NCBI GenBank assembly: GCA_947034895.1
Contig: OX344762.1
Location: 27,074,760-27,138,759, forward strand
Source: Rhytidiadelphus loreus
Taxonomy: Eukaryota > Streptophyta > Bryopsida > Hypnales > Hylocomiaceae
Direction of reading: 5' to 3'
DNA: 64,000 nt
The notes under the pieces were generated by a model, which was given only the letters and a program-made list of their open reading frames with translations, had not been told where the DNA came from and searched no databases. Shown here in pieces: positions 1-48,477 of this stretch (positions within the stretch are counted from its first letter, which is position 1; each line of letters starts with the position of its first letter). The translations under genes and the position numbers were made by a program.

Positions 1-3000
1 AGCCTCTCTGGTACCCTGGCTCCCACAATGTTCGATAGCCTGTCCGCTTCCTCAATACTAAAATATCCAATGGGCGCCCTTCTCCACAATTTGATAGAAT
101 GACCACTAGTCTAAAGTTGCCGTTCTCCTCGTTTCCTTTCCCCTGTTTCACTTTCTCAGAACGACCTTGTTTCAAGTCTTCTTTCTTATGCAGAGCCCAT
201 ACCTCCCCTTTCCGTGGGTACACTTGAATCACATTGTCAAGCTTTGGTGTGAACTCCATCCTATGCGAGAAGTAATTTACAACATTGAAGATTCTCGTCT
301 CCTTCAGTTCTTCAAAATCCCCACAACTCCTTGGATTCAATGCTTCCTGTGACGACCACGCTCACAACACTTTCCGTCAAAGCCTTTTCCATGAAAGCCT
401 TTATCAGTTCAAGCGAACGAAGCTTTTGGTGGCACAAAGCAAAAACATGCAAAACATTTTCATGTACACATAAAAGAAGAGGGGACAAACCTTTTGCCGT
501 TCATTTTTCTTGGATGCAATGTGAGGTTGTAGCCAGCTTGCCTTCACCCAAAAGGCACCATTCATGCTCACTTCCTTGACTCGAATCAAGGAACGTGGCA
601 TAAAATCAATTTCATGATAAAGAGCCCATACCTAGAATAGCCAGCATGAACAGGCAGTTAGTGTCAAATAAGAACTAAGCCACAATAAGCACATCTTTAG
701 GAACCAAAGCATAAAGATAGGAGCACAGTAGAACTTACCACCAAGATAGAATAGAAGAACCATGTTGCCCAAGGTGAACAAGACTATATGGGTGACAAAG
801 ATTGTACCTCGTTTGTTTTAATTTTCTCCTTCACGCGATCGCCATCAAAGTTATAGTAATCAGAATCAGGAACAGGCTTTTGTTGTTCTTCATCCACATC
901 TACAGAAGGGTGCCCTTGAGAGTTACTATGCTTGGGTCTTCCTAAAGGTCTTGATGAACGTGAGACCCGCTGCAAGTTAGTGTTTCTTGGATCTTTGTCC
1001 GATTGTGTAGTCCTGTCAATGCAGGTGTTTGCACCTGTTACACTAGGGACTATCAGACCTCACGAATCATTAAAATTGGAGGGGAGGGAGAGAAGGGAAA
1101 GGGCCACGAATCTTATCAAAAGGAACAAGAAACGATACGTGATGACCACAGAAAATATAATTACCTTGTGACATAGATTTTGTTGGGTTGGGATGCAATT
1201 GGGCTTTTGTGCCTGGAGGACGTCCCCTGCGACCAGGTAATTTTCGCCCATATAGTGGCCTTATGGACGCTGACTTCTCCCTTTGTTTGAATTTCAGCAT
1301 GTCGGCAACGGACTCACCAATCATTCTCTCGGTATCATTATGCAATCCGGGCTCAAATCTGGGCTCAAATACATGCTCTTCTACACTATCACTATCACCA
1401 TCATTCTCTAACTCAACGAACTCCTTCTCCACTTTTACTTTCTCGAGCTTCGAAACGTCGGATGAAAACCCTATGTTGCTCTTACCCAACTCTCTGGTGT
1501 GACTTCTTTCTGCATTTTCAGCGCAACCTCTATCTGAAAACTCCAGACGCTCCCTACAACTGTTCTCTTCGCTTGGAAAAAGGTTAACGTTCAGAGTCTC
1601 TCTTGGTGATTGGAGATGTTCAAAATCGGTGTGTGGAAAATCAACCACATCCAAATCCCTATCAAGCTTCTTCAATGAAAGCGGGGTGATTAGGTGTTTC
1701 GAATCACATGGTGAGCCCACATTTTCTGTAGGTTGATTTCCTACACAGCCTGATCCTCCTGTCATAGAGTTTCCGATTTGTATCTGCGCCTCCCAAGACT
1801 TTACTTCAGTTTTAGCTTCAGATATCCAGGTGTTCCACTGTGCTCTGACCACCCTCAACACCAACAATAACGACATCAGTACATATTGGATACATAATGC
1901 TTGTGAACACTATGCATTTTACATAATGCTTGTAGAATATATCCAGAGATCTGCTTGGCAGACCCTTTCTTCCTTAGAATGGCCGCCAGGCAATATAAGC
2001 TCGAACACATCGCGACGACTCTAGCAAACATCCAGAATCTTTACACCATTGATATATTAACCTTAAGCATTGAAGTATTTGAAAGTACACTGAAAAAACA
2101 GGCTACAGGCTTGTTGTGACGTTTAAGGGTTAAGCTAAATGGAAATATTGAAGGCATACCTGTTTTCATAGTTGAAAGAACTTGCAAACTTCTCGCTGCA
2201 ATTATCAGAAGTATTGTAAGCAGGTTTCCACTGTGCCCTAATCAATCTCAGAACCAATAAAGTCATCAGTATGCTGCACTAGATACGACAATTTGTGGAG
2301 CTTGTAGCACACAGTTTTGACAGCCTTTTCAAATACTCAACAGCTAGAGGAGCTTTGATACATCCCAATGACTTAAGGAATTATGTAGAATCTTGAAAAT
2401 CGCCAAGATGATGACACAAGCGAATATTGCAAACTTGAAGAAGCAAAGCATGTACCTGCTTCGATTATCGAAAGTGCTGGGATGCTTCCCAGAACGATGA
2501 TCCCCAGACTGCCAAAGTGCGTTCTGATCACTTTCATACTCACTCTCCGTCTTGATACAAGGAGCTGCACCAGCTGGTCTGCTTCTGTCCTCATGGGCAT
2601 CGTCCCTATCCTTCCGCTTCCATGACCTGCTTCGACAGTCAAGTGGGGCCTGTGCTTCAGCTTCCAGCCTTGATCGGCAGTGCTCATCTTTCACCATTGA
2701 CACATTCATATTCGGTTCCTCAATGTTCCCTCGCCAAGGATCAGGCATCGAGTCATTTAAGCGGTCAGCCCTAATTGTAAATTTTTTTCCGGGTTCATCG
2801 GGCAAGCCTTCCATTGCTCTTGGAATCCTTCGGTCCAGCAACTCTTCATCGTCCAAGACGCCAGGATCGACTTCAAGGTTGTGGAAGTCCTCTTCTTCAC
2901 TATCACTGAGCATGATGACGCCTTCTCGCCCCTGACTTGCACCATGTCCCTTCGACCCAGAGAGCTCAAACTTTCGGCTCTCCACACCAGTGTTAGACTT

Positions 3001-5082
3001 TCGAGGATTAATCCAACCACTGCCACCGAAGGTCGCCATACCCAGCTTTCTGGATTCATGCGACAGGACGGCCTTTTCACCAGCCGGGGTGTTGAGGACA
3101 TTTGGGGGCATTGCAACATCGTGAAACGTGGGCGCAGGCCTGCTCATTGAGTCAATGTCAACAGTCATAGTTCGGCTGGGTGTGCGGGGCTGAGCCCACG
3201 ACGACAGTCCGTGTTCATACAACCTTGCTGTAAATTCCGGGGAATGTTTGGGTGGTGGAGTTCGATTTAATCCGTCATACACACCCACTTTCTTAGGTAA
3301 CTGCAACTGGGAAGACCCCACTCTGTCCAAAATATAATCGCGATCATCAGTCATTGGAACTTGGATGGCCTCACCCCGCTGTTTTGGGGGCCTCAACCTC
3401 TGCGCTTCCGCCTGTGCCTGCTCTCTCTTATTCTCACTGATGCCTTGATACCCAGATGGTAGGGATTTCAGCTGCCCATGGGACACTCCCACGTAACTCC
3501 CCAAGCCAGTTGGCCTGTCGAAGCAGAAAGTCGGGGTCTGATGGCCAAAGCAAGGCACAGTCTCCTCCTCTGAGACGAGCCTCCCAGCATTGTACACTCC
3601 TAGGTTCAGCATCTTCGATGTCGACGAGACTGACTGCAAAACCTGTCTCGGTGATATCAAGTTCTCCATAGCAGGTGTCCGGAGTTCGTGCTGTTGAGCT
3701 CTGCCATCCAATGTTGTCAAGCTCGACGGATGCGTAGGAGTACTCAACCCCGAAACGGGCTCATAGCTGGCTGTTGATGAATTGAATTTCGGAGCACTAT
3801 TTGGAAATTCGGATTTGACGACTAATCCGTCCAATTCTCCACGCATACCCTCTGTGGTTGGTGCTTGTTGGGACAGACTTCTCTTTCTGACCTTCTGTGA
3901 TGCTGAAAACCGCATCGCCAATTGGCGGGCCTTCTTGCTCTTATCAATCTTGCACTTCGCCAGAAGATCCTGGGTGCAACATAGCATGCACACCATTGTG
4001 ATTGACAAGTTTGCTGACACATAGTATTTCTGGTCTACCCGCATGAATATCTCTCTTAGGGTGCATTGCATTTTACATTTATAGCCTCCTACAACCTTTA
4101 AAATTTGAAAATATATGTAGTCTATTGCACCTCCAAAACTTACAGCTTATTGGGACAACATTAAATGAGACTACCTTATCCATACTCGATCCAAGTTGCC
4201 AACGAGTGACCTCAACATACCTTCACTATGAGAGTCGTCTCCATTAGCACATTCAAGAACTCTGGTACGATTTCCATTGGGCTACTATCTTCTTGAAGGA
4301 AAAGAGCCACCCTTGGTTCTTCGTTATATCTCATGTCAGCTGTAGTCCAAGAAAGCTGCAATGGCAGACATAAATTAGTATCCAGGGAATAACACGTTTT
4401 CAGCCCTCGCAAAATGAAAATAAAATGAACTACAAGAAAAGATAAAAGCAAATGAAGAGCTTCCTGAGCTAAGGTAGTTCATGAATACCAAGGAGAGAGA
4501 ATGAAAGATATATACCCGCATAACGTTGGGTCTTCGACCTAGTGCCTCAAATGAATATTGGGAGTCTGAAATACCATCACCCAGATATAGACGCGCCTGG
4601 GAGAAAAATTCTTCACAATTAATGCCCAACATTGACGCTATGTCCCGTATCTCCTGCGACACCACTGTTTTTTGTTCACAATTTCGCATCCCACAGCCCG
4701 AGCACGCACACATTCACACAAACAATAATACACAGTGAGTATAAGATTGACAAGAGCATCTCCCAAATTCTTCAAGCACTCACATGACGAATCTCAGACC
4801 GCCCACAATATCTGCTGCAATCCCCAAGACCTAGGTGGTAACATTTCTAACATACCAAATCTGCCAGCTTGCAAAGGGAAGGTTCTGAAATGAAATGCAA
4901 AACTGGAAGGCCAAGATCAAACACATAGACATACCGTGGCATGACCAGGAGCGCGGAAAGTCCATAGCTGTGACGGAGAAGCTGGTATTGAACCATTTGG
5001 AGCGGAGAAAGATGTGGCTTCCATCCAGCAAAGTCAGACGTGTGCAGGTGATGGTGTGATTACCACCTGGCACCTCCACCAT
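1..5082 (-). CDS. XRCC4-head-like / AT-hook / DUF3444 protein (partial, 3' end off window)
   Basis: Exons read by eye: 4935-5082, 4516-4664, 4221-4355, 2456-3969, 2160-2273, 1165-1844, 808-1034, 491-631 and 1-346, which is open to the window edge. Phases agree at every junction, giving about 1150 residues. The ATG at 5080-5082 opens a segment (about residues 8-144) that matches the XRCC4 head domain in order: a CTRL beta strand, a K-W-F strand, RSWSC, an ARLYLG helix, YSF, RLSWT and an EFLNVLME helix. The long fourth exon is Ser/Pro-rich and looks disordered; it carries VIMLSDSEEED near residue 495. The next exons have an AT-hook core (GRRGRPPG, about residue 893) and a second GRP motif. The last exons match DUF3444: DSDYYNFDGDR, VWALYHE, MPR, KASWL, SCGDF, NYFSHRM, IQVYPRKGEVWAL. 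No J domain is present, although DUF3444 often follows one. DUF3444 partners of J domains are known in Arabidopsis as co-activators recruited by SUVH1/3. XRCC4 works with DNA ligase IV in end joining, but its long coiled coil is not evident here. Two adjacent genes, with the second starting in the 1165-1844 exon region, remain possible. Confidence 0.6.
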
Positions 5083-11447: not shown

Positions 11448-14400
11448 TCAAGGAATACGGCGGACCTGAATGGACTGCAACATATCACTCGTGGAGATGT
11501 CAGAGACGGCCACAATGAGGTCCCCAGACTTCATCATGCCACGCGCTTTCAAGAGCGCAAACGTCCTCCGGAGGTTGCTCTCCATATCTCCGGAGAAGTC
11601 GAGGCGAAAGGGGATCAACCCCCACTGCAGGTTCAGTCTTTGCCGGACCGACTTGGTGTCGGTGAAGGCGAAGATGGGGCAGTCCGGCCGTGACCTGGAT
11701 AAGAGGGACGCCATGTAGCCGCGTCTTGTGTACACGAAGATGGCGTCGACTTCCAGTCTGTTGGCTGCGGTTGTCCACAAGACAGTGCGTTTCAGATATG
11801 TCAGCAACAGAATGTAAAACATGGTATGCACATGTATCACAAACCAAAACTCTCTACCAACAAGATGTGCAAAATGGGTCCAAATTCACCAGAATCTTCT
11901 CCAAACGTTGTTGCATATGATTCAGTTCTAGTGACCAGTTTCTACGCAATGGTAAAATTGGCTTAGAGCCACTTAAGATTGAACAGGCTGCGCAACGAGC
12001 TCAAGATAAATTCTACACCTTGATTAATGGAAAAAACATTTTTGAATTATTTTGTTCTTCTTAATGTCAACTTCAAACTAATCCAAATTACAAGAATGCG
12101 CATGAATAGGTGTACTTTCAAGGGTCCTCTAAAATCGATTTGAGGTAACAAGGTTTCAAACCGCCACTTTGAGGTGGATTGGACACTTGCTACCTCAAAA
12201 CATCGTAAATGTAATGAATTATATTTGGATTGTTATCTCACCCCTAGTAGAACATGAAGGACGTTCAAATTTTAACCTTGGAACTTCGACCTGCAAATAA
12301 AAGCCCTCACTCTATACCTTGATTCGACCCACTTGCTTCATATTGAAGCTATTTTGGTTACTATCGACAACTATTAGAAAACTAAAATTTAGCGAGATTG
12401 TGTACCCATCTGGGAGGCAGAGTTGCATATATTCTCTGAGATGCGGTCATGAAGCGCAGAGGAGAGTTCGGGAAGACGATCGGAGGCATGCTGCTTGTTC
12501 TCACGACACCACGACTCCATACGCAGACTGACGGTGCGCAGGACACTGAGCGCCTTCTCTGGGAACAGTCCCATGGCCGACTCTCCAGACAACATCAACG
12601 CATCTGCTCGTTGCCTCACAGCCTCCGAAACATCTGCCACCTACATGGGGCCATCACAACAAGGGTCTCAGATGAGAAAGTCAAAGTAATAACAAACAGT
12701 AGAATATCCATTCTCCCTTGTGAATTTACCTTAATTTGAAATGTATTTAACCGCTGAAGGACAGAGATTTCACGGTTTTAATTTGAACAATTCCATTGAT
12801 GGTACTGTGAAAAATCAATAACTCAGATAGGGCCAAATTTGATATCACCAGAGTCAATGAAGGACATTGCATGTGTTTGTAAAAAATAGAGATAAATGAG
12901 CTAAACTACTACAACATATAAGGAACAAATTGGGCCTCCAGGTCCCCTGAAGGACCAAGGTGAAGACCTTCTCTTGATCAATTTTGTTTATTTATTACCA
13001 ACATGTGCTGATTCTAGTACTATTAAAGTTGGTTCCATCCGAATTCTATAATTTTCACAATAGAATAATCTGAATTAACCATGAATCCTTGGGGTAAATT
13101 GAAAACTGAAGACAATAAGACTATCATGACGATTTCTGACCTCCGCTCGAGTGGGTGTCGGGAACTCAATCATGGATTCCAAGAGCTGCGATGCTACAAT
13201 GACCGGTTTGTTGAGCTCCCGGCATAAGTTGACAATCGTTTGCTGCACAGAAGGCACTTGCTCCAATGGAATTTGAGCACCTAAATCACCTCGAGCCACC
13301 ATAGCTCCATCTGAAACACGAATGATGTCCTCCAGGTTCTTCAAAGAGGCACTGCTCTCAATTTTGGCGAACACCCCAATTGATCTGTTCACAGATTAAC
13401 TCCGTATGTCAGAGAGGATGCAAACGTTGGCAGTATGGCCCCACCCGCACCAATCAATTATCAACAATTAACTAACTAAAATTCGCTACTAATAGCCCGA
13501 GTTGTGTCATTTAGCAAATTGGTGCTAAAACCTGCAAACTAACTTGCAATCAATTAGCTAACACTCCTATCTTGCACGAATAAACTAACTGTCCCTCTAC
13601 CAATGGTTGAAGTGCCAAATCTGCTGGCAACAACCAAAAACCAACAATATAGCCAACTGTAAGGCCTATCTCCACATCAGTTGCCTGGCAAGTGCAAGCA
13701 CACAATAAGTTCGTTAACTTCCAACAAGCTAATACAGTAAGTTAATTAACTTCCAACTAACACCGCAGTTAGCTAATTCACGCTGCTTGGTTGGAGAGAA
13801 GAAAGTAACAAATTGAACAATAATCGTTTAAGTCAGGAATATTCCTTTTTGCTGGTACGATGAAAGTACGATGGTAAGATCAAGTTGTCCAGCCCCTAAC
13901 GTAATAGATTTTCTGAAACAAAATTGAAAAGTGACTCGTACCCGTTTGGTGATCTTGCATGAATATAACTCTTCAGATGCTTAATGACCTCCGATGTCTT
14001 CACAAAGGAGACGGCAATAAAATCCACCCCTTCTGCAATTCCAAAGTCAATGTCAATCCAATCCTGCACAACACCAATTACCAGTATCAGCAAATATCTT
14101 AAGAGAACTCTTCGTCTTGCCCAACGAAAACATGTGAACACTAAGCGTTCCATGAGGCTCACCTTGGACGAAATGGTGGGAAGCATGGCATTTCGCTCTC
14201 GAACTAGCCGGCCTTCCCTCCAGAAAGTCAGATTGGCACGAGGAAGCAAGAGACCGGGATCAATGCACTTGCACTTGACATCCGGACCGACCTTCTCCTT
14301 CACTTCAAATCGAACCATCCCTCCATCCACCACCAACTCGTCCCCAACTCTAACATCTGTCAACAACCAACCAACCAACCAGGTCAGGATCTTTGGCCTA

Positions 14401-15870
14401 GAATTTCCAATTCTGAAGGTTATTCAACGATAAGAGTTGCACATGATTGCTGCTAAAATGAAGTAAACAACAATGCTTGCTGCCGAGATAAAATACCTTC
14501 AGCAAACCCGTCGTAGTTCACAATTGCGGTGTAGTCTGGCAGAGTTTCGAGTTTGCGGACCGTGAAGATCCATTCCTCACCATCCTTTACAACAAGAAAA
14601 TTCAAAACCACGGTCAGACATAAAATCAGAAACCTCAGATACCAATTTTCTTCAAATTGGTTCAACCCCCAGTTCATAGCGCCGTCACGTCGGACAGACG
14701 CTTCACAAATTCAAGTGTCTTGAGCGAATACTCGAAAGGATGACACCAAAAAGTACATGAAATCAGTTGGGATCACTCACTCACCCTTTCTCCACTCTAG
14801 AGCCAAACTGCAAAAACATGTCAAAAACTGTAGAGAACAATCACATAGAGCTAAAAGAATACTAAACAGTTGAGAAAATGCCTTCGCAAAGGCCATCATG
14901 AGCTCAAAAATATTAAATTTTCGTTGCTTCGTGTGATATTTCTCTACAGTGATTGATATACCACTTCAACTTGATTCTGGAGTGCGGAAGGGTGAGTGAT
15001 CGCAACAGTCCTAGAACGTTATGTTCGGTAGATTCATTTCATCATTATAAGATGCAAACTTCGGGAGGCTCACGAAAAACAATAATTCTGATTTGATAAT
15101 GATTTGTGGAAGAGATTGCTGTGGAAGAAGCGAGAGATTCCAGACTTCACTTCTTACTTGTTGTAGCTTGCGACATAAGTTGCGACACAAGCACTTCGTA
15201 TAGATTTGCTACATAACCTTGCATTTCTTATCGATGTAATCATATTAGAAAGTGTCATCACTCATACCTCGGCTTTGACAGATGGAGCGCCATTGAAGTC
15301 GCCCATGTGAATCTCGCTGCCCTCGGTGTCCATCATGATAGCCACGGAGTACCCCTTCTCCGAATTCAAGCTGCGCACATTGCGAATGACATTCGTGTGC
15401 CAGTCGCGAGTCCCATGACACATATTGAGCCTGGCCACATTCATGCCGCCCATAGCCAGCGCCTCCAACTGCTCGGGAGCGCACGTTGCAGGGCCGATGG
15501 TGCAGATCAGCTTCGTCCTTCGCGTGCTCCGGAACCCGTTCTCCTTCAATTCGGCTTCCGTCACCGTGTCCACTTCCATGGACTGCCCTTGCTGCCCTAA
15601 TATCGCTTCCTCCACCACGTTACGACCATTAGTAGCAGTCGCGACGCCATCGCTGCTCTTCTCCAAACCCAAGGTCGCCGTCACCACGGGCGGCGGCAAC
15701 CCCTTACGGTTCTTATGCCCTCCAGATTTCAACGTAACCAACTTCAACGGCGTCCCAAACGATGCAGCGCAGGAGAGGCGAGTATTGGATGCAATCTCCC
15801 CGTGAACACATGACGGCACGGACGCTGAGCAACGCAGTGATGATGACTGCATCATCGCCCCGTGCGCCAT
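11448..15870 (-). CDS. PKP2: Plastidial pyruvate kinase, beta-type subunit
   Basis: Pyruvate kinase (phosphoenolpyruvate + ADP to pyruvate + ATP), plastid isoform; in Arabidopsis its relatives supply pyruvate for fatty-acid synthesis. Exons: 15268-15870, 14497-14584, 14163-14356, 13942-14063, 13141-13384, 12406-12640, 11448-11764. All phases close, giving 600 residues, near the usual length. The ATG at 15868-15870 starts a Ser/Ala-rich region of about 75 residues that looks like a transit peptide. The catalytic domain follows with [41 protein letters not shown], a B-domain ([20 protein letters not shown]), [25 protein letters not shown] (catalytic Lys and Mg-binding Glu), [17 protein letters not shown] and SGESAMG. 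The C-terminal domain ends SDMLQSIQV. Overall it follows Arabidopsis PKP2 (beta1) very closely. One oddity is five extra residues, ISTSD, between AVSD and MLQSIQ near the C terminus. The gene is head-to-head with the ferredoxin/TPR gene. Confidence 0.93.
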
Positions 15871-17236
15871 GGCCACACAGAAAACCGTCCCTCGCTCAAC
15901 TCACAAACCAGATTTGAACGGAAACTCAAACACCCTCCCCAAGGATTGCACGCAATCTCAACACCTAAAATCTTTCCAAGGATTGAACGCAATCTCAATC
16001 CCAAACTCAACCGAGAGAATCACAGGAACGAGAAGAAACGAGATGAAACGCAGAAATCGGGGCAATGAGCAAAGATTGGGAGAACGTTTGCGTGAAAAGT
16101 GAAAAAAAACTTAAGGTAATCAGGGGTTATGCAGGGCTTTGCGACTTCTGAGATTGATTGTGAGCGCACGCAAGTGAGAGCGGGAGAACTGGGTTATGGT
16201 CGCATTGCACGAGAAGTGAAAATGGCGATGGATGGGAAGTGAAGAGCCTCGGCTGAAAATGGCTGAAGAGAATGGAATCGGTGGTGGACGGAGCATCTGC
16301 AACGGGGGAGCAGCGGAGCACACGAGGCAGCCAGCCAGCGTTGGTTGGGGGTCCCTGGTTAACTTAGCTCGCTTTCATCATACTTTGCCTTTCCCACGGT
16401 TATTAGTGCCGTGGTGGTTACCCGTCACCGTGAGGTTTGTGGCCGCCGTCGTCGTCATCAACCAACTTTTGTGACCCGAAGTCTGCTGATGCCACAGCGA
16501 TGGCGGTGCCCGAGCTTCTTCGCTTCTCCTTCTTGTTGCTGAGTTTCTTATTACAAGCATTTTTTACGAAGAACCGCCGGATATTCCAGATTCGAGTTCT
16601 GGGGACTGTTTTTTCAGGAACGAGTTCTGCGCTTTATTCTGTTTTTTTATCAACAGCCTGTGTTCTTGAGCTGCAACTGAACCTGTCTGGTGTAATTGAA
16701 AATCGTTGGAAAATCCTTCAATTCCCGCTGAGCGAGAAAGTGAGAACGTTCTTGAACTCTTTACTTGCACGTAGCTCTCAGTAACCATCTCGCACCGACC
16801 TGCTGACAAGCTCTTGGACTTGTGTTTCGAATTCAGTTCTTTCGCCGTCAGAGTTCGGAGGATTCTGTTTCGTGTGAGTGCTGTAGTTCACTGCACTTGG
16901 ATTGATGGTGTAGAGATGTGCAAAACCAATTGATTTTCAAGAGGATATCAGTTCGTGACTATTGCCGTTCTCTTTTTCTGGTTCTATTTTTTGAGCTTTG
17001 GAGGAGATTGCACACACTTCTCATAGCTAGAGATTATCAGAGAGAGATTAATCAGAACTTGATTTTTTTCGTTTCTGGAAGTTTAATGTTTCTATGATCG
17101 AAAATTTGACGACATCAATAGTGTTAGAAGCTTCGATTAGTTCGGTTTAGGATTGGATGTTTTGACGACTGTCATAATTTAGTTCGATTTGAGAGTACGA
17201 GGTTTTCAATTGGAAAATAGGTTGCCGATTCCAGCG
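15871..17236. promoter_or_regulatory. Shared divergent upstream region (pyruvate kinase / ferredoxin-TPR)
   Basis: This 1.37-kb stretch separates the two start codons. It is richer in GC than the distal spacers and holds several short open frames on both strands (for example 16120-16323) with no family match. It must contain both promoters and 5' UTRs. I cannot place transcription starts or a clear TATA box. Confidence 0.5.
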
Positions 17237-22084: not shown

Positions 22085-23057
22085 ATGGGTTACCATGTTC
22101 AGATTGACAAAATCCTCCATATTTTCTTTGGCAGAATTCCTTCGGCTGCATGTGTAGAAAAAAACACAAAATACCGATTGGCGATTACAGTACTGGTTCG
22201 TGTGGCCTGCACATTATTCAAACTTACACATGGTGCAAACTTCACTATTTGTAGTGAAATGTTTGCTATTGGCAGGAGCACGGGCTCAAAAGTCCTATGA
22301 GAGGTGGTGAGCACCATCAACGACACATACAACACGAAATCTCTGAGCCCTCTGGAGACAGAATGCGAGAAACTCAAATGAAGTTTGCTAACCTATGTGG
22401 TTTGCCTACAATTGCAATTGGCGGTATGCACGTGAGTATATCTAAGCCCCAGTTTGAAACTGCGGACTATTTTTATTTCAAATCAGGGGGATATACTGTA
22501 AACTGTCAAGTTGTCGTTGACAGTGACAAACGATTCCTAGATGTCTTTGTAGGCATGCCAGGTTCCACAAATGATAGTTGCATGTTGAAGCGTTCATCAC
22601 AGCATACTTTGGCTATGCACAGCAATCTTATGGATTTAACTTGTTCGGTAAATGGTTTCACATCCTACATCATTGGTGATTTAGGGTATCCACTTCTTCC
22701 TTGGTTGATGGTTCCGCATATGGCCAAGGCTTATCAAAGGCTCTATTCAACAGAAGATTGCGGAGAGGCCGTTGTGTAGTAGAAAATGCATTTGGCATTT
22801 TAAAACAATCATTTCGAGAGTTGCTTGATAAATCTTATCTGAAACTCACTCTCCTACTGGACATCATTATCTGTTGTGCCATACTCCACAACGTTTTACT
22901 ACGGCAGTCTCACCAGGATGTGGAGGAACTCCTCCTCGTGCTACGTACTAAAGGCATATACGGTGAGGTGGATGATGACAAGGATGTTCCGATAGATGGC
23001 GGTGGACTTATTCCTGAGAACATGGCCACAGCAATGGGGACGGAGAAGAGGTCATAG
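22085..23057 (+). pseudogene. Decayed PIF/Harbinger transposase (DDE_Tnp_4)
   Basis: Three frames together give a Harbinger-type transposase. The N-terminal part (22085-22300) has the helix-turn-helix-like words YRLAITVLVRVACTLFKLTHG and FAIGRSTGSKVL, then a TGA at 22298-22300 where the family has Arg (REVV). A frameshift near 22375 leads to the catalytic part: ADYFYFKSGGYTVNCQVVVDSD, FLDVFVGMPGSTNDSCML and YIIGDLGYPLLPWLM. A second frameshift near 22710 leads to VVENAFGILKQSF and IICCAILHNVLL. The second Asp (GDLGY) and the Glu (VVENAFG) of the DDE triad are present. The first, normally in AIDGTH, is Gly here (AIGGMH). The element cannot make an active transposase. Confidence 0.8.
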
Positions 23058-45790: not shown

Positions 45791-45999
45791 GACGATTGGG
45801 GTTTTGTGCTTTTTTGTGGAATTGTTGGCCTACTGTTGAAGAGGACTTGCGTGATGGAGACGCGATGGGGCGGAGGTTCGGCATGTATCTTAGTTGGGTG
45901 AATTCAGGGATGAGGAGGGAATTGGGGGAATGCGGAATGATTAGGGTTTGCGATTGGTTTTTGAGGTTTGCGGTTTGAGGTTTGGAAGCGCTCACGGCG

Positions 46000-48477
46000 A
46001 TGGTGATGCTGGGGTTGAGCGAAGGCGGAGGTTCGGAAGGTGCGAGTTCCAGTTCCGAGATGCCGAACAAGTTGTGGAATGCCTTCGGCGAAGACGGCGA
46101 GTGTATTATTCCGGGCTTGCCGAACGACTTAGCCTGTCTGTGCCTTGCCGGTCTCCCTTTGTGTCAGCACAGTTCCTTCAAAGTCGTTTGCAAGTCCTGG
46201 AACGCGGTCCTCTCGAGCCGAGGTTTATTCGACATTCGGAACCGTTGGTCGAAACATGAAGAAATCATGTGCCTGTTCCGTGACGACCCGTCCATCACGC
46301 AAGGGGAGCTTTTCGACCCCCGGTCGCAACTCTGGAGTCTCCTCCCTCCCATGCCCTCGGAGGCTTTCACTTACGGGCTCACCAATTTCGAGTGTGTCTC
46401 CCTGGGAAATTCGCTTCTCATCATAGGCGGATCCCTCTACGACGCAAGAAGCTTCCCCATGGATCGCCCCTTGCCGTCTTCCGCCGTCTACCGCTTCGAC
46501 CCTATGAACTCGCGATGGGACAGACTTACAGATATGCGCACTCCACGAGGAAGCTTCGCCTGTGGAGTTCATGAGAGTTCAGTGATTGTGGCAGGTGGAG
46601 GCTCACGGCATGCGCAATTCGCTGCAGGGGGAAGTCGTCTTTCTTCTGTGGAGAAGTATGATTTGGGAGATGATCGGTGGACTGCATTGGGGAATTTGCA
46701 AAACATTCGAGCTGGTTGTGTAGGGTTTGTTCTTGGGGAGGAGTTTTGGGTTATGGGGGGTTATGGAGGCTCAAGAACGATTGCGGGGATATTGCCTGTG
46801 GACGAGTATTATGCTGATGGGGAGATTCTGAACCTGAAGACTGGGGTGTGGCGGATTTTGAAGCCAATGTGGGAAGAAGGCGAGCGCAGGAGGTTGGGGA
46901 AGGTTGCCGTGCTTTGCAATTCGAAGGGGGAACCGGAGAGTATTTTCATGTTGGACGGCTCTGCTCTTTTCAGGTACTACGCAGTTTTTATTATTATTCA
47001 AGAGTCTGGCTAGTATTTTAGAATTAAGAGTATGGAATTTGAAGTTAGGGAGAATTTTAGGTCGCAATTTGACCGAGAGCTGCCAGAACAAGAAAAACAC
47101 TGGTAGTAAATATCGAGGGGGTTCCGGTTTTCTTGTATGGAGTGTTACTTGCAATTAGGCCATGTGTTTACTTTCATATTCGAAAAGGTGCTAGTATTCA
47201 AAAATCTGGTTACCAATTCAAAATAACACATGGAATCCACTTGAAGTTAGTTATGTAAGATTTTAGGTCTGATAAGAGCCAGAAGATTTAAAAACACGGG
47301 TACTATACATTGAATGGTCTGGTTTTCTTGTGCCATTGCATGCTATAAGTGTTTTTATCCTTCAAGAGGTTTGGATATTCTCTTGTGGAACAATTTGATT
47401 ACAAAATTTAAGCAATTGGATATGATAATATACAATCATTGTAAGGAACAGGCTTTTGTTTTGAGAAAGTTGTCGAGATAATTAGTGTTAGCAAGTGTAC
47501 CATTTAGGGGTGGTCTCAGTTGGTGAAAATGTTTTCTTCGTTGGTCGGCCAACAGTTTCTACTATTGATTTAAGAATACTAATCCAACGTCTTGGTTCTG
47601 ACAGTTCTCATAATAAGGCAAAATCTGCATATTTGGAAAGTTTTTTTTTTTTTTTTGACAGAAATCAAACTGAATTTCATTTGCAAGGGTAAAAAATACA
47701 AGGTCTGCCAGCCACTAGTGGCCTGGCAGGAGAGACACAGGACTAAACATATTTGGAAGGTTGAGATGTATTCTAAACGCCATACAAAACCCCTATTTTT
47801 TATGTTTGTGTTATATGCCAACCCCATAATGAGCTTTGAAATGATAAGTATGGGTTCTTTTTTTGAAAATGTCTCTTGGGGTACAAAGACTTCTGGGATG
47901 CGAAATGTGTACGTCTTACAGCCTGACCTCTTTAATCTGACCGCCTGGGATCCCAAAACAATGACCTTGACGCAGTTTGAATGTTTGACAAGTGTGCTAT
48001 AGTCGATGATGGTATGTCATTTTAGAGATGGTCATACCGGCAATACAATTAGGTCAGAAGACCGAGACGACGTGGTTGCTCATACTGGTGCAGGAGTTTA
48101 GGGTGCAATTGCACACTCGGTTTTTTATTTTTCCAACTTAATGTTAATGTTGAGTATAAATTCGAGACTTGTTGTTTTGCAGATATGGCATTCAAGAGAA
48201 CCGGTGGATCAGAGAAGCACAACTACCAGGTACAGTGCTGGCTGAGGCATCATGCCGACTGGTTCCCTTGGGAGGAGAGTTGTATGTGATCCCTGGGGGC
48301 CCAGTGCTGGATATTGGAGACGGGAAACGGACACCGAAGAAGAAACGAGGATCAATAGTGTTTCAAGTATATAACCCCAAGACTCGTGGTTGGCGTTTCG
48401 TGATGACTCGTCCTCTGCTGGCCAAATCCGCCAGGAATAACTTGTCATGGGGAGGTGTGTGTACATTGAGGTTGTAA
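46000..48477 (+). CDS. F-box/kelch-repeat protein
   Basis: A likely substrate receptor of an SCF ubiquitin ligase. Two exons, 46000-46973 and 48183-48477, join in phase (TTCAG/ATATGG) and give 422 residues. An in-frame stop at 45976-45978 rules out a longer N terminus; the ATG at 46000 is the first available. Residues ~37-85 are the F-box: IPGLPNDLACLCLAGLPL, FKVVCKSWNAVLSS. Kelch-type beta-propeller repeats follow: WSLLPPMP, LLIIGGS, VYRFDPMNSRWDRLTDM, RGSFACGV, VIVAGGG, VEKYDLGDDRWTALGNL, EFWVMGGYGG, LNLKTGVWRIL, then LVPLGGELYVIPGG, VFQVYNPKTRGWRFV after the intron. The overall layout resembles Arabidopsis At1g55270-type proteins. The target is unknown. The 1.2-kb intron carries a retroelement fragment. 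Confidence 0.88.
47641..47755 (-). mobile_element. Truncated LINE-like 3' end in the F-box gene intron
   Basis: A run of 16 T starts the segment; read on the minus strand it is a GC-containing tail (CCACTAGTGGCTGGCAG, then GCAAATGAAATTCAGTTTG) ending in poly-A. That is the form of a 5'-truncated non-LTR retrotransposon inserted antisense to the host gene. Base composition differs from the surrounding intron. No coding domain remains, so a SINE is also possible. Confidence 0.4.

What the first reader, a model, noticed from the sequence alone, without database searches (positions are those of the whole stretch)
1..5082. Possible fusion of an XRCC4-type head domain with AT-hooks and DUF3444
Seen: five-prime exons encode a ~140-residue segment that follows plant XRCC4 head-domain motifs in order; downstream exons, in matching phase, encode AT-hook cores and a clear DUF3444. 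Known: XRCC4 pairs with DNA ligase IV in end joining and normally has a long coiled coil; DUF3444 usually follows a J domain and, in Arabidopsis, acts with methyl-DNA readers SUVH1/3. Neither the coiled coil nor the J domain is evident here. Inferred: a single protein would join a repair scaffold fold to a chromatin-associated domain. That architecture is new to me.
Basis: partly seen in the sequence, partly recalled or inferred. Interest (0 to 1): 0.75.

Follow-up and report, generated by a model that had tools for sequence, protein, structure and literature searches.

The report
Moss XRCC4-DUF3444 fusion protein family
Mosses carry a small, conserved family of proteins that join the head of the DNA-break-repair scaffold XRCC4 to a chromatin-linked domain, DUF3444; the gene in this window is a fast-evolving, intron-bearing member of that kind.

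Summary
The window gene (minus strand, nine exons, 5082 to 145 bases past the window start) encodes 1190-1193 residues; Pfam finds XRCC4-N (E 1.2e-10) and near-complete DUF3444 (3.2e-43), both above curated cut-offs. The fusion does not rest on splicing guesses: a paralog carries both domains in one uninterrupted 698-residue frame. Of 21 hits from two database searches, 17 carry both domains, including Ceratodon, Physcomitrium and two Sphagnum species; a third search, with the window head, found nothing. Models of two relatives match solved XRCC4 best. A second intact copy keeps all nine exons; Ka/Ks is 0.27 (head) and 0.39 (DUF3444). The canonical XRCC4 of the same genome keeps the coil segment that I recall as the ligase-IV site; none of 17 fusions tested (of 21 at hand) has it. 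I infer dimeric, chromatin-associated scaffolds that no longer act as ligase-IV clamp. No paper in the held library has both names. The window gene may be a second, independent fusion; trees do not settle it. No RNA or biochemistry was available.

The parts
4935..5082 (-). exon 1, start codon and first part of the XRCC4-type head
   Evidence: 148 nt in both copies
4516..4664 (-). exon 2, XRCC4-type head
   Evidence: 149 nt in both copies; ends at the same alignment place and phase as intron 1 of the canonical XRCC4
4221..4355 (-). exon 3, end of head and start of the coil helix; 135 nt, as exon 2 of the canonical XRCC4
2456..3969 (-). exon 4, long linker, probably disordered (by reading); stands where the canonical gene has its coil exons
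2160..2246 (-). exon 5, linker
1165..1853 (-). exon 6, linker with AT-hook; an in-frame acceptor 9 nt downstream (exon from 1844) is the one shared with the second copy
1214..1240 (-). AT-hook core, PGRRGRPPG
   Evidence: sequence; coordinates worked out by hand
808..1034 (-). exon 7, second core GRPK (about 931-948) and start of DUF3444 (from about 882)
   Evidence: inner coordinates worked out by hand
491..631 (-). exon 8, DUF3444
1..346 (-). exon 9, rest of DUF3444; it continues past the window start to a stop codon at -143 to -145

Best explanation
The window holds one gene for a fusion protein: XRCC4-type head, little or no coil, a long linker with AT-hooks, and a C-terminal DUF3444. Proteins of this architecture are kept by mosses, in this genome beside a normal XRCC4 (shown). 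Most likely the head, with the short coil where it is kept, makes the protein a dimer (inferred from the fold); the linker and DUF3444 hold it on chromatin or on chromatin-bound partners (inferred from AT-hooks and from DUF3444 in DNMT3 and DnaJ proteins); and it works as an accessory or regulatory scaffold, not as the DNA-ligase-IV clamp, because the coil segment recalled as the ligase site is missing in the fusions tested (absence shown, consequence inferred).
Against: No transcript, protein or phenotype was seen. XLF and PAXX act in end joining without that clamp (recalled), so its loss does not exclude a repair role. In the motif test four fusions have a weak best score that few of 200 shuffles reach: P0004 3, P0005 7, second copy 9, B 17. 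The window head was not folded, and as a single sequence it matches no XRCC4 chain in the PDB at E<=10 and no database protein at E<=1. None of the DUF3444 loci found in this genome is a DNMT3. PAXX chains are shorter, which lowers their Z. Whole-model confidence is low (mean pLDDT 49 and 59).
Confidence: 0.6

Rival explanations
1. The fusions are working end-joining factors, XLF- or PAXX-like accessories that bring XRCC4-ligase IV to breaks in particular chromatin.
For: By fold the head is nearer to XRCC4 than to SAS-6 or CCDC61. Physcomitrella has a second XRCC4-like gene (PMC8803787, passages), which may or may not be the fusion. XLF and PAXX lack the ligase clamp too (recalled).
Against: No link to Ku, ligase IV or XRCC4 could be tested; the ligase segment is absent from the 17 fusions tested. 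In the window protein the DG of the head motif reads DF.
Confidence: 0.3
2. In the window, two neighbouring genes (one XRCC4-like, one with DUF3444) are wrongly joined.
For: No RNA evidence; exon 4, if unspliced, reads into a stop at 2344.
Against: Phase-matched splice sites are conserved in a second copy 61.7 Mb away; internal exon lengths differ only in threes, while introns differ by 4 to 760 bases, six of eight not in threes. Paralog A has both domains in one frame.
Confidence: 0.05
3. The window gene arose by a fusion of its own, independent of the A/B fusion family.
For: Its head shares two intron positions and phases with the canonical XRCC4, whereas A and B have no intron in the head. 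Its DUF3444 groups with J-type DUF3444 of the same genome (88/91) and scores 144 bits on a J-type profile against 97 and 95 on A and B; its head scores 42 on a canonical profile against 25 and 28.
Against: A single fusion clade is not rejected for DUF3444 (p 0.136). In the head tree all fusions already fall on one side, with negligible support (39/10), and C with canonical D is not rejected either (p 0.37). The branch is very long; more diverse profiles score distant sequences higher; the canonical profile used two recalled sequences. A and B could have lost introns by retroposition.
Confidence: 0.35

Closest known systems
XRCC4 (PF06632)
   Same: Head profile and, for two relatives, predicted fold; the window gene also shares two intron positions with the canonical XRCC4 of this genome
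   Different: No ligase-IV segment in the fusions tested, shorter or missing coil, added linker and DUF3444, AT-hooks in B and C types
XLF, PAXX, SAS-6, CCDC61 (same superfamily)
   Same: Head fold
   Different: Rank below XRCC4 in the fold comparisons run; none has DUF3444 as far as I recall
DnaJ-DUF3444 proteins
   Same: C-terminal DUF3444; one such gene in this genome shows a J-type HPD motif by reading, and P0020 carries PF00226 with PF11926
   Different: XRCC4-type head in place of the J domain
Plant DNMT3 with C-terminal DUF3444 (P. patens)
   Same: DUF3444 at the C-terminus behind an unrelated domain
   Different: No methyltransferase domain found

Membership tests
XRCC4 | N-terminal head domain by profile | tested here: met
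   window protein 41.7 bits, cut-off 26.2; paralogs A and B
XRCC4 | head fold followed by a coil helix | tested here: met
   for relatives P0001 and P0016; not tested for the window protein
XRCC4 | coil segment recalled as the ligase-IV site | tested here: not met
   0 of 17 fusions tested, window protein included (21 at hand); canonical copy of the genome has it
XRCC4 | binds DNA ligase IV and supports end joining | not testable with these tools
   needs biochemistry and genetics
DUF3444 family | PF11926 over cut-off, nearly full length | tested here: met
   148.2 bits, profile 4-210 of 211
DnaJ-DUF3444 proteins | J domain | tested here: not met
   none in the window protein at E<=10 or in A at E<=1
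Plant DNMT3 | cytosine methyltransferase domain | tested here: not met
   no such Pfam match
XLF / PAXX | closer to XLF or PAXX than to XRCC4 | tested here: inconclusive
   XRCC4 ranks first, but rank depends on chain length and does not assign function

The most novel reading that the evidence does not exclude
Mosses joined an XRCC4 head to DUF3444 at least twice independently, in the A/B family and in the window gene, which would mean that tying an end-joining-type dimer to a methylation-linked chromatin domain gives a recurrent advantage in mosses.
Probability: 0.3. Interest if true: 0.85.

Novelty: new variant of a known kind. Interest (0 to 1): 0.62.

Why it matters
Mosses are known for homologous recombination and high gene-targeting rates. 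A conserved family that couples an XRCC4-type head to a domain found on a moss DNA methyltransferase gives a testable link between break repair and chromatin state, and warns that 'XRCC4-like' genes of mosses may not be ligase-IV partners.

Tried and rejected
Homolog search with the window head (residues 1-165): 110 candidates, none at E<=1, so no ortholog outside this genome is shown; the word filter can miss a fast-evolving gene. PDB search by sequence with that head: four weak hits (E 0.014 to 0.39) to GRB10-interacting GYF proteins and a bHLH protein, taken as chance. Head tree: place of the window gene and of the Sphagnum protein P0014 unresolved. A fold for DUF3444 was not obtained: the rows cover mainly residues 4-201. 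XLF contact residues were looked at by eye only and left out.

Full report
Place. The window is C2:27074760-27138759 of a 407 Mb assembly. I infer a moss: the nearest named relatives of its fusion proteins are from Ceratodon (61% and 71% identity). The organism's name was not available.

Observation. I rebuilt the gene from splice sites. Nine exons on the minus strand, from the ATG at 5082 to a stop 145 bases past the window start, are bounded by AG and GT at all eight introns, match in phase and give an open frame (a first try with three borders one base off gave stops). Exon 6 has two in-frame acceptors 9 nt apart; only the downstream one is an AG in the second copy, so the protein is 1193 or 1190 residues. 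Pfam on the spliced protein gives XRCC4-N (E 1.2e-10, 41.7 bits, cut-off 26.2) and DUF3444 (E 3.2e-43, residues 959-1167), and no other family at E<=10.

Is the fusion real? Strongest is a paralog, A, at C2:59.27 Mb: XRCC4-N (1.2e-14) and DUF3444 (1.5e-54) lie in one uninterrupted frame of 698 residues. Paralog B (C3:40.4 Mb) has head, coil, AT-hook and DUF3444 in three exons with matching phases. The window gene (C) has a second copy at C2:88.77 Mb with all nine exons; corresponding internal exons differ in length only by multiples of three (three exons differ, five do not), whereas the eight introns differ by 4 to 760 bases, six of them not in threes. Nei-Gojobori Ka/Ks between the copies, with bootstrap range: head 0.27 (0.14-0.49, 144 codons), DUF3444 0.39 (0.25-0.61, 240 codons), linker 0.59 (0.45-0.79, 680 codons). 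Two relics with stop codons lie at C2:43.5 and C2:73.1 Mb: broken copies exist, and C and its second copy differ from them in being intact.

Distribution. A search with paralog A gave 15 proteins at E<=0.01; 14 carry both domains, one (Riccia, a liverwort) only DUF3444. A profile of B and four A-type proteins gave six at E<=1e-5; three carry both, two are single-domain hits from contigs under 2 kb and one is a J-DUF3444 protein. Named sources of two-domain proteins are Ceratodon purpureus, Physcomitrium patens, Sphagnum tenellum and S. compactum. In the DUF3444 tree one Sphagnum protein falls with A (94/92) and another with B (96/89), so the A/B split may be older than the split of Sphagnum from other mosses; the head tree leaves the A-type Sphagnum protein unplaced. 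In each of these searches only the nearly 8000 candidates sharing most words were scored, and proteins of very different length are not candidates, so absence from other plants is not shown. The window head itself found nothing.

Relation to canonical XRCC4. A fourth gene, D (C4:37.1 Mb), is an ordinary XRCC4: it aligns with human XRCC4 through the coil, including FVPVLNSKKAKLREL against FILVLNEKKTKIRSL, which I recall to be the ligase-IV site. Against a 22-residue query from D, that segment scores 60 in Arabidopsis (recalled sequence) and 53 in human (as printed), with 0 of 200 shuffles reaching it; the best score is 13 to 27 in 17 fusions. For 13 of the 17, shuffles reach the score in 18 or more of 200; for P0004, P0005, the second copy and B they do in 3, 7, 9 and 17. 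The 17 are the four fusions of this genome and 13 of the 17 database fusions; P0008, P0009, P0011 and P0013 were left out. Introns 2 and 3 of C sit at the same alignment columns and phase as introns 1 and 2 of D, around an exon of 135 nt in both, which indicates that C's head came from an XRCC4 gene by DNA copying. A and B have no intron in the head.

One fusion or two? C's DUF3444 joins what I call the J-type DUF3444 of the same genome (88/91), but a single fusion clade is not rejected (p 0.136). In the head tree all fusions fall on one side with negligible support (39/10), and C with D is not rejected either (p 0.37). Profile scores point to two fusions but lean towards more diverse profiles, and the canonical head profile rests on D plus two recalled sequences. 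The J label is seen by reading in one of the two genes (HPD motif) and was not checked for the other. I leave the question open.

Function. DUF3444 is the C-terminal domain of P. patens DNMT3 proteins, and that order is said to be conserved in non-flowering streptophytes (PMC6453930, passages). SUVH1/3 recruit DNAJ1/2 transcriptional activators (PMC11139477, one passage); that those carry DUF3444 is recalled. AT-hook-like GRP or RGRKP cores occur in the four B and two C sequences examined and in none of the eleven A sequences (one of the C matches lies inside DUF3444). I therefore favour dimeric chromatin-associated scaffolds that have left the ligase-IV role; an end-joining accessory role is the main rival.

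Prior art. No paper in the held library contains both XRCC4 and DUF3444, and only nine contain DUF3444 (listing). Searches with XRCC4 plus Physcomitri (4 papers), XRCC4-like plus moss (23, 10 listed) and PAXX plus Arabidopsis plus XRCC4 (14, 10 listed) showed no title or abstract on such a fusion. PMC8803787 (12 of 13 passages seen) names two XRCC4-like genes in Physcomitrella, Pp3c1_38430 and Pp3c14_21160; it is not among the nine papers with DUF3444. The domain pair is visible in the precomputed Pfam columns of the protein database, so it is recorded but, as far as these searches go, undescribed.

Noticed in passing
L034 (C2:73.09 Mb) and L035 (C2:43.53 Mb): Two broken relics of the window gene within the 9 kb fetched at each place: one with head exons (one piece on the other strand), one with DUF3444 exons, both with stop codons.
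   Followed up: partly
window 1844-2246: Exons 5 and 6 begin in the same phase with a similar R-AQW stretch, as if one was copied from the other.
   Followed up: no
genome G000, DUF3444 matches: The eight DUF3444 matches fall in six loci (A, B, C, its second copy and two others); none was seen to be a DNMT3, though P. patens has DNMT3 with DUF3444. The search is exon by exon and scores only best candidates.
   Followed up: no
window 13896-15900, minus strand: Frames that look like a pyruvate kinase gene, by reading only.
   Followed up: no
window 22258-22779, plus strand: Frame that looks like part of a Harbinger-type transposase, by reading only.
   Followed up: no
window 45979-47013, plus strand: 344-residue frame that looks like an F-box/kelch protein, by reading only.
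   Followed up: no
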